Below are positions 17,179 through 37,847 of a stretch of 64,000 bases of DNA, piece by piece. The DNA lies in the NCBI RefSeq assembly GCF_000147815.2, contig NC_015957.1:7440001-7504000 (forward strand), written 5' to 3'. Origin of the DNA: Streptomyces violaceusniger Tu 4113 (GTDB taxonomy: Bacteria; Actinomycetota; Actinomycetes; Streptomycetales; Streptomycetaceae). The position numbers and the translations under genes are program-made. Each line of letters begins with the position of its first letter. Positions within the stretch are counted from its first letter, which is position 1. The notes under the pieces were generated by a model. It was not told the origin of the DNA and did no database searches. It was given only the letters and a program-made list of their open reading frames with translations.

Positions 17179-37847
<20,669 letters not shown>

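What the first reader, a model, noticed from the sequence alone, without database searches (positions are those of the whole stretch)
36397..36400. One-base deletion breaks the downstream giant PKS gene
The gene starting at 37847 loses frame in the KS-AT linker of module 4, yet the rest of the protein stays open for more than 6000 codons in the shifted frame. A near-identical tract in the upstream PKS (45261-47358) reads CCCCC at 46870-46874 where this copy reads CCCC. The offset between copies changes from 10473 to 10474 nt exactly there. Either the strain cannot make the product, or the assembly has a homopolymer error that would make automated annotation split or misname the PKS.
Basis: seen in the sequence. 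Interest (0 to 1): 0.75.

Follow-up and report, generated by a model that had tools for sequence, protein, structure and literature searches.

The report
Probable assembly slip splits reveromycin-type PKS

Summary
In detail: the minus-strand PKS gene from 37847 changes frame at 36397-36400 and stays open to 17179. A 2.1-kb twin in the neighbouring PKS differs by one substitution and this one-base gap. The gene is the orthologue of revD of the reveromycin producer Streptomyces sp. SN-593, where one unbroken 7030-residue protein is collinear with the two pieces. I favour a consensus error over a true lesion (0.70 to 0.25). The site is a G/C run inside a near-identical repeat, where polishing is unreliable (PMC8812927); rRNA operons here carry single-copy one-base indels; the three other PKS genes are unbroken. 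Against: one control genome has similar rRNA indels, two other homogenised tracts have none, and the locus shows true decay: tailoring genes are missing and one survives only as a remnant. The broken module is probably module 9, not 4. A side finding: the module-4 acyltransferase, an unusual alkylmalonyl type in SN-593, is here 99.7% identical to module 7's methylmalonyl-type one, apparently a natural domain swap by gene conversion.

The parts
36397..36400 (-). short G/C run where the reading frame changes, in the KS-AT linker of the first module of this PKS
35982..37847 (-). ORF A: N-terminal piece of the revD orthologue (docking domain, complete KS, then an out-of-frame tail)
   Evidence: residues 1-485 align to SN-593 RevD 1-497 at 86%
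17179..36762 (-). ORF B: remainder of the revD orthologue (rest of the first module, three more modules, thioesterase)
   Evidence: residues 115-6525 align to SN-593 RevD 487-7028 at 80%
34781..36884 (-). near-identical tract holding the frame change (KS end, linker, AT and part of DH; domain limits by motif positions)
   Evidence: one substitution and one 1-nt gap against 45254-47358; motifs
45254..47358 (-). twin of that tract, in module 2 of the RevC orthologue, in frame
37924..56457 (-). RevC orthologue: KSQ loading module (DTGQSSS) plus three modules, frame intact
   Evidence: one tblastn alignment over residues 1-6177, 81%
27968..32919 (-). second homogenised tract (within ORF B)
   Evidence: 32 substitutions and no indel against 38492-43443
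38492..43443 (-). partner of the second homogenised tract (within the RevC orthologue)
13273..16038 (-). LuxR-type regulator with AAA domain, RevU orthologue, downstream of the PKS as in SN-593
   Evidence: (79%)
7251..8081 (-). SARP/BTAD-family regulator with a counterpart in the SN-593 stretch
   Evidence: 83%
57019..58056 (-). hormone-sensitive-lipase-type hydrolase, conserved in the SN-593 locus
58131..58437 (-). remnant of the acyltransferase-like gene that is whole (337 aa) in SN-593: residues 1-59 and 148-186 only, 59% and 56%
58605..59753 (+). beta-propeller (lactonase-like) protein, conserved in the SN-593 locus
59789..61354 (+). FMO-like flavin monooxygenase, conserved in the SN-593 locus
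62858..63949 (-). SDR oxidoreductase, 90% identical to its SN-593 counterpart

Best explanation
The one-base shortfall is most likely a consensus error of the assembly. The underlying gene is probably one intact orthologue of revD, the PKS gene with four modules and the thioesterase in a reveromycin-type cluster. Gene conversion made the KS-AT-DH stretch of its first module almost identical to module 2 of the neighbouring PKS. Short reads cannot be placed uniquely in such a 2.1-kb repeat, so a wrong length of a short G/C run from long reads would survive polishing. Shown here: the frame change, the twin, the single unbroken orthologue, and single-copy one-base indels in the rRNA operons of the same assembly. 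Inferred: the sequencing method, the polishing history, the gene conversion, and that the DNA itself is intact.
For: SN-593 RevD (P0001, 7030 aa) is collinear with ORF A 1-485 and ORF B 115-6525, with the switch at the junction. In genome G279 the same place is one open frame of 7041 codons. All 5 of 5 short DNA stretches taken from PMC7311520 (revD, its terminator, the revU promoter, two primers) occur exactly in G279 at this locus. The frame change sits in a G/C run; the other 5 readable paralogous segments have a run of five. It lies in a 2.1-kb repeat with one other difference. The RevA, RevB and RevC orthologues align to SN-593 in single unbroken alignments. 23S rRNA: 4 columns where one of 6 copies has an extra base; one of 6 16S copies has a G4 run shortened to G3. 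The 5 control genomes have 4 single-copy 23S columns in 27 full-length copies, 3 of them in one genome. In a 400-kb sample of this genome, 3 of 10 frameshift candidates (7 of the 10 tested) have one domain family split over two frames; of 6 control candidates 2 were tested and neither does. Passages read: PMC8812927 (residual errors are mostly homopolymer lengths and persist in repeats); PMC6923854 (70, 295 and 335 differences in three PacBio Streptomyces genomes); PMC4832174 (205 indels corrected in one).
Against: No raw reads and no second assembly of the strain were available. The run is short (4-5), where long-read consensus is usually right (recalled). Two other homogenised tracts, 4952 bp and about 2.0 kb, show no indel. 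Control genome G153 has 3 single-copy 23S indel columns in 4 copies, so rRNA indels are not proof of error. Raw frameshift candidate counts differ little, 10 against 6 per 400 kb; the model was trained on this genome, and its sensitivity was not measured in the controls. The split genes that I looked at are not in obvious homopolymers by eye and may be true pseudogenes. The locus shows real decay: the acyltransferase-like gene is a remnant at 58131-58437, other SN-593 genes have no close copy in this genome, and transposases flank and enter it.
Confidence: 0.7

Rival explanations
1. A true, recent frameshift. The strain makes a 621-aa stump (docking domain, KS and junk tail) and possibly a headless remainder from an internal start. 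The chain cannot pass through this module, so no reveromycin-type product is released.
For: The sequence as given. The substitution at 36616/47090 shows that the assembly kept the two copies apart. A neighbouring gene is a true remnant (58131-58437), so the locus has lost function elsewhere. No close copy of the SN-593 P450 (best 58%), AMP-binding (38%), FAAL (32%) and RevT-like (53%) genes. A transposase pair lies inside the locus at 61225-62673.
Against: No second frame break in the rest of the gene or in the three other PKS genes. Tailoring genes can be lost while the PKS stays in use. Homogenisation of methylmalonyl-type ATs suggests recent remodelling rather than plain decay (inference). 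The site is of the type where assemblies err.
Confidence: 0.25
2. The break is real in DNA but bypassed by transcriptional or translational slippage on the G run, so that some full-length enzyme is made.
For: The downstream frame stays open for about 6400 codons.
Against: A run of four is much shorter than runs known to promote efficient slippage (recalled). The readable paralogues and the SN-593 orthologue have no such break.
Confidence: 0.02
3. The split is old and functional: the KS and the rest of the module work as two separate proteins.
For: The KS is complete.
Against: ORF A ends in an out-of-frame tail and ORF B begins in out-of-frame KS codons. SN-593 has one protein. Pfam reported no docking domain in the first part of ORF B.
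Confidence: 0.01

Closest known systems
Reveromycin biosynthetic cluster of Streptomyces sp. SN-593 (Actinacidiphila reveromycinica), gene revD
   Same: Ten genes in the same order at 73-90% identity: RevA, RevB, ALDH, SDR, FMO, propeller, hydrolase, RevC, RevD, RevU. KSQ loading module in RevC in both.
   Different: revD is unbroken there. Here the P450 and AMP-binding genes are gone from the locus, the acyltransferase-like gene is a remnant, RevS-like and close RevT-like genes were not found, and the first AT of RevA is of another type.
Homopolymer indels left in long-read bacterial assemblies, especially in repeats (PMC8812927, passages read)
   Same: G/C run, one-base length difference, long near-identical repeat.
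   Different: The run is short and the sequencing method of this assembly is unknown.
Concerted evolution of PKS modules by gene conversion (PMC4256081, passages read)
   Same: Mosaic of near-identical and clearly diverged tracts between modules of one cluster.
   Different: Here one tract also changes the predicted extender specificity of module 4 relative to SN-593.

Membership tests
Reveromycin-type PKS cluster | collinear RevA, RevB, RevC and RevD PKS proteins | tested here: met
   RevA, RevB and RevC orthologues align over 5193 of 5204, 3675 of 3675 and 6177 of 6177 residues at 78-81% (the RevB query began at 77400); RevD in two pieces at 86% and 80%.
Reveromycin-type PKS cluster | RevU-type LuxR regulator next to revD | tested here: met
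   79% identical, same position; revU promoter stretch located in G279.
Reveromycin-type PKS cluster | alkylmalonyl-type AT in module 4 and its supply genes | tested here: not met
   The AT is 54% identical to the SN-593 one and of YASH type. FAAL (RevS-like) best match 32%, while the same search finds it at 100% in G279. RevT-like best 53%, no positive control run; its label is inferred.
Reveromycin-type PKS cluster | P450 (between FMO and propeller) and acyltransferase-like and AMP-binding genes (between propeller and hydrolase), as in SN-593 | tested here: not met
   P450 and AMP-binding absent at the syntenic place, best elsewhere 58% and 38%; acyltransferase-like gene a remnant. Their roles in reveromycin tailoring are recalled.
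Reveromycin-type PKS cluster | makes a reveromycin | not testable with these tools
   needs culture and LC-MS
Assembly consensus error | raw reads disagree with the consensus | not testable with these tools
   no reads held
Assembly consensus error | site in a homopolymer within a repeat that short reads cannot resolve | tested here: met
Assembly consensus error | other repeats of the assembly carry single-copy one-base indels in excess of controls | tested here: inconclusive
   4 columns in 6 23S copies against 4 in 27 control copies, 3 of those in one control; one more in 16S, for which no control was run; none in two other homogenised PKS tracts

The most novel reading that the evidence does not exclude
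The same gene-conversion process that made the twin tract around the break also carried out a natural acyltransferase swap in this cluster: module 7's methylmalonyl-type AT replaced an alkylmalonyl-type AT in module 4, alongside loss of the alkylmalonyl supply and tailoring genes. The line would then make a methyl-branched, less decorated relative of reveromycin. If the break is real, conversion from the twin could also undo it, so it may be reversible.
Probability: 0.45. Interest if true: 0.55.

Novelty: not a real feature. Interest (0 to 1): 0.3.

Why it matters
Automated annotation would report a truncated KS protein and a headless PKS, and genome mining might discard or misread a reveromycin-type cluster. 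The case shows where complete assemblies of PKS-rich genomes may be least reliable: inside modules homogenised by gene conversion. The apparent natural AT swap, if confirmed, would be a natural precedent for changing an extender unit in a working assembly line.

Tried and rejected
A first frameshift scan, one strand at a time, gave many candidates and did not list the known break; a two-strand model replaced it (crashed, worked). An apparent second PKS frameshift at 77447-77850 in window numbering, outside the window, proved to be an ordinary gene boundary with the start codon chosen too early by my ORF finder. The direction of conversion of the twin tract could not be decided: both copies are about 79% identical to both SN-593 counterparts. 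The thioesterase searched in 199 genomes of the genus gave matches in 178, of which the listed ones other than the window itself reach 41% at most; the list was cut. In 394 genomes of the family, 3 matched at 1e-70: the own genome, G279 at 85% and G214 at 47%. A genome-contig scan with the thioesterase end confirmed none of 24 pattern matches. One with the FMO kept the best 80 of 437 relatives, at 59-67%; I did not look at their surroundings. 23S: 2 partial hits of G040 and 5 of G153 were left out of the control, as was a spacer run shared by 2 of 6 own operons. The first 23S control alignment mixed orientations and was discarded (redone). Naming the strain through its small contigs failed: one piece matched 65 plasmids but none over 80% of its length, the other none; the tool says own records may be left out.

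Full report
Observation. On the minus strand, ORF A (37847..35982, 621 aa) and ORF B (36762..17179, 6527 aa) overlap in different frames; the frame of ORF B is open back to 36771. The + strand reads CCCC at 36397-36400 and CCCCC at 46870-46874. The tract 34781-36884 matches 45254-47358 with two differences: this one-base gap and a substitution at 36616/47090. In the 250-column windows next to the tract, identity is 52-88%. Of seven paralogous KS-AT linkers aligned, six reach the column; five have a run of five and only this copy has four.

What the gene is. Pfam finds a docking domain and a complete KS in ORF A, then AT, DH, KR and ACP in the first part of ORF B, and ACP plus thioesterase at its end. 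A protein search with the thioesterase end of ORF B gave 14 proteins at E<=0.001 among the 855 candidates scored. The best is a 7030-aa polyketide synthase of Actinacidiphila reveromycinica at 85%. That single protein is collinear with ORF A 1-485 (86%) and ORF B 115-6525 (80%), with the change of piece at the junction. Genome G279 holds the same gene as one frame of 7041 codons, on a contig whose length, 8833490, equals that listed for the A. reveromycinica protein. Five short stretches printed in PMC7311520 (passages read) for revD, its terminator, the revU promoter and two primers all occur exactly in G279 at this locus. The gene in the window is therefore the revD orthologue, 37924-56457 the RevC orthologue and 13273-16038 the RevU orthologue. 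The names RevA, RevB and RevC are given by position and recall. RevA and RevB orthologues lie just outside the window. Of 27 long ORFs taken from the 120-kb G279 stretch, many of them outside the cluster, 10 have a match in 124 kb around the window, in the same order; a SARP regulator is an eleventh shared gene, at another place.

Module number. RevC starts with a KSQ domain (DTGQSSS) in both genomes, so it holds the loading module and modules 1-3. PMC5187497 (passages read) states that module 4 of the reveromycin PKS takes the unusual alkylmalonyl units. Of the 13 AT motifs found in the SN-593 line, 12 are YASH or HAFH and only the first of RevA departs. RevA would then hold modules 4-6, RevB 7-8 and RevD 9-12, and the broken module is module 9. 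This order is inferred; the meaning of the motifs is recalled.

For an assembly error. The site is a G/C run inside a 2.1-kb near-identical repeat. PMC8812927 (abstract and passages read) says that residual errors of long-read assemblies are mostly homopolymer-length errors and often remain in repeats after short-read polishing. PMC6923854 reports 70, 295 and 335 differences between PacBio-only and Illumina-corrected versions of three Streptomyces genomes, and PMC4832174 205 corrected indels in one (passages read). In this assembly, one of six 16S copies has a G4 run shortened to G3. Four 23S columns have an extra base in one of six copies, one of them a few tens of bases after the conserved AGTACGAGAGGACC stretch. 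Five control genomes (G108, G040, G049, G164, G153) gave 0, 0, 1, 0 and 3 such 23S columns in 6, 5, 6, 6 and 4 full-length copies. A coding-frame scan that found 17 of 20 simulated one-base deletions gave 10 candidates in 400 kb of this genome. By Pfam, 3 show a domain family split over two frames (zinc alcohol dehydrogenase, DAO, carboxyltransferase), 4 are inconclusive or ordinary, and 3 were judged ordinary gene ends without a Pfam test. Two control genomes gave 6 candidates in 400 kb; the 2 tested show no split family and 4 were not tested.

Against an assembly error. The raw candidate counts, 10 against 6, are not far apart, and the model was trained on this genome. The split genes that I looked at are not in obvious homopolymers. 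One control has more rRNA indel columns per copy than this genome. Two further homogenised tracts of the cluster, 4952 bp with 32 substitutions and 2036 bp with 9 substitutions, have no indel. Above all the locus shows real loss. The acyltransferase-like gene that is whole in SN-593 survives here as two fragments at 58131-58437. The P450 (best 58%), the AMP-binding protein (38%), a RevT-like reductase (53%) and a FAAL that fits RevS (32%; found at 100% in G279 by the same search) have no close copy in this genome. A transposase pair sits at 61225-62673. A recent true lesion therefore stays possible, and I put it at 0.25.

If the lesion is real, the likely effect is loss of product. ORF A would give docking domain and KS with a junk tail, ORF B would lack its first KS, and the chain could not pass. 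This is inference from collinearity.

Side finding. In this genome the first modules of the RevA and RevB orthologues share a tract of 2036 bp with 9 substitutions that includes the AT. The ATs are 99.7% identical over 321 residues, while the SN-593 pair shares 53%. The module-4 AT here is thus of the YASH (methylmalonyl) type, where SN-593 has the unusual one. Together with the missing supply and tailoring genes this looks like a natural AT swap by gene conversion, giving a methyl-branched, less decorated congener. The remnant gene suggests that the simpler set is the derived state. PMC4256081 (passages read) describes conversion of AT domains within PKS clusters in general. Two searches (three papers each, titles and abstract starts seen, passages of two) showed me none that describes such a swap in a reveromycin cluster; that is no proof of absence.

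Verdict. The most likely cause is a consensus slip in a converted PKS repeat, so the finding itself is of modest interest; it should be settled from reads before anyone calls the cluster dead.

Noticed in passing
C3:7530207-7532242 and C3:7514666-7516701 (RevA and RevB orthologues, outside the window): First modules of the RevA and RevB orthologues share a 2036-bp tract with 9 substitutions including the AT; in SN-593 these ATs share 53%. Apparent natural AT swap in module 4.
   Followed up: partly
58131-58437: Remnant of the acyltransferase-like gene of the SN-593 rev locus: two fragments, the middle and end missing.
   Followed up: partly
window 57019-61354 against G279:C1:7195898-7204444: The P450 between FMO and propeller and the AMP-binding gene between propeller and hydrolase in SN-593 are missing here.
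   Followed up: partly
27968-32919 and 38492-43443: Second homogenised pair of modules: 4952 bp, 32 substitutions, 30 of them at 30280-30742, no indel.
   Followed up: yes
22072, 26560, 31651, 36744, 42175, 47218, 52357 (+ strand, 75 bases each): Seven Rfam matches to RF01782 (ASpks sRNA) antisense to the KS domains. Probably conserved KS coding sequence rather than RNA genes.
   Followed up: no
4744-6864, 8605-12225, 61225-62673; L010:10086-11858: Transposase and HTH genes, a group II intron-type reverse transcriptase/maturase and an IS1182 transposase flank or enter the cluster.
   Followed up: no
1-3909: RHS-repeat protein with DUF6531, 10 RHS repeat stretches.
   Followed up: no
L051:17230-18145, L047:5301-6281, L050:10733-11351: Carboxyltransferase, zinc alcohol dehydrogenase and DAO genes split over two frames in sampled chromosome; assembly errors or pseudogenes.
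   Followed up: partly
L060, L062 and L063 (rRNA operons): Single-copy one-base insertions in 23S and a shortened G run in one 16S.
   Followed up: yes
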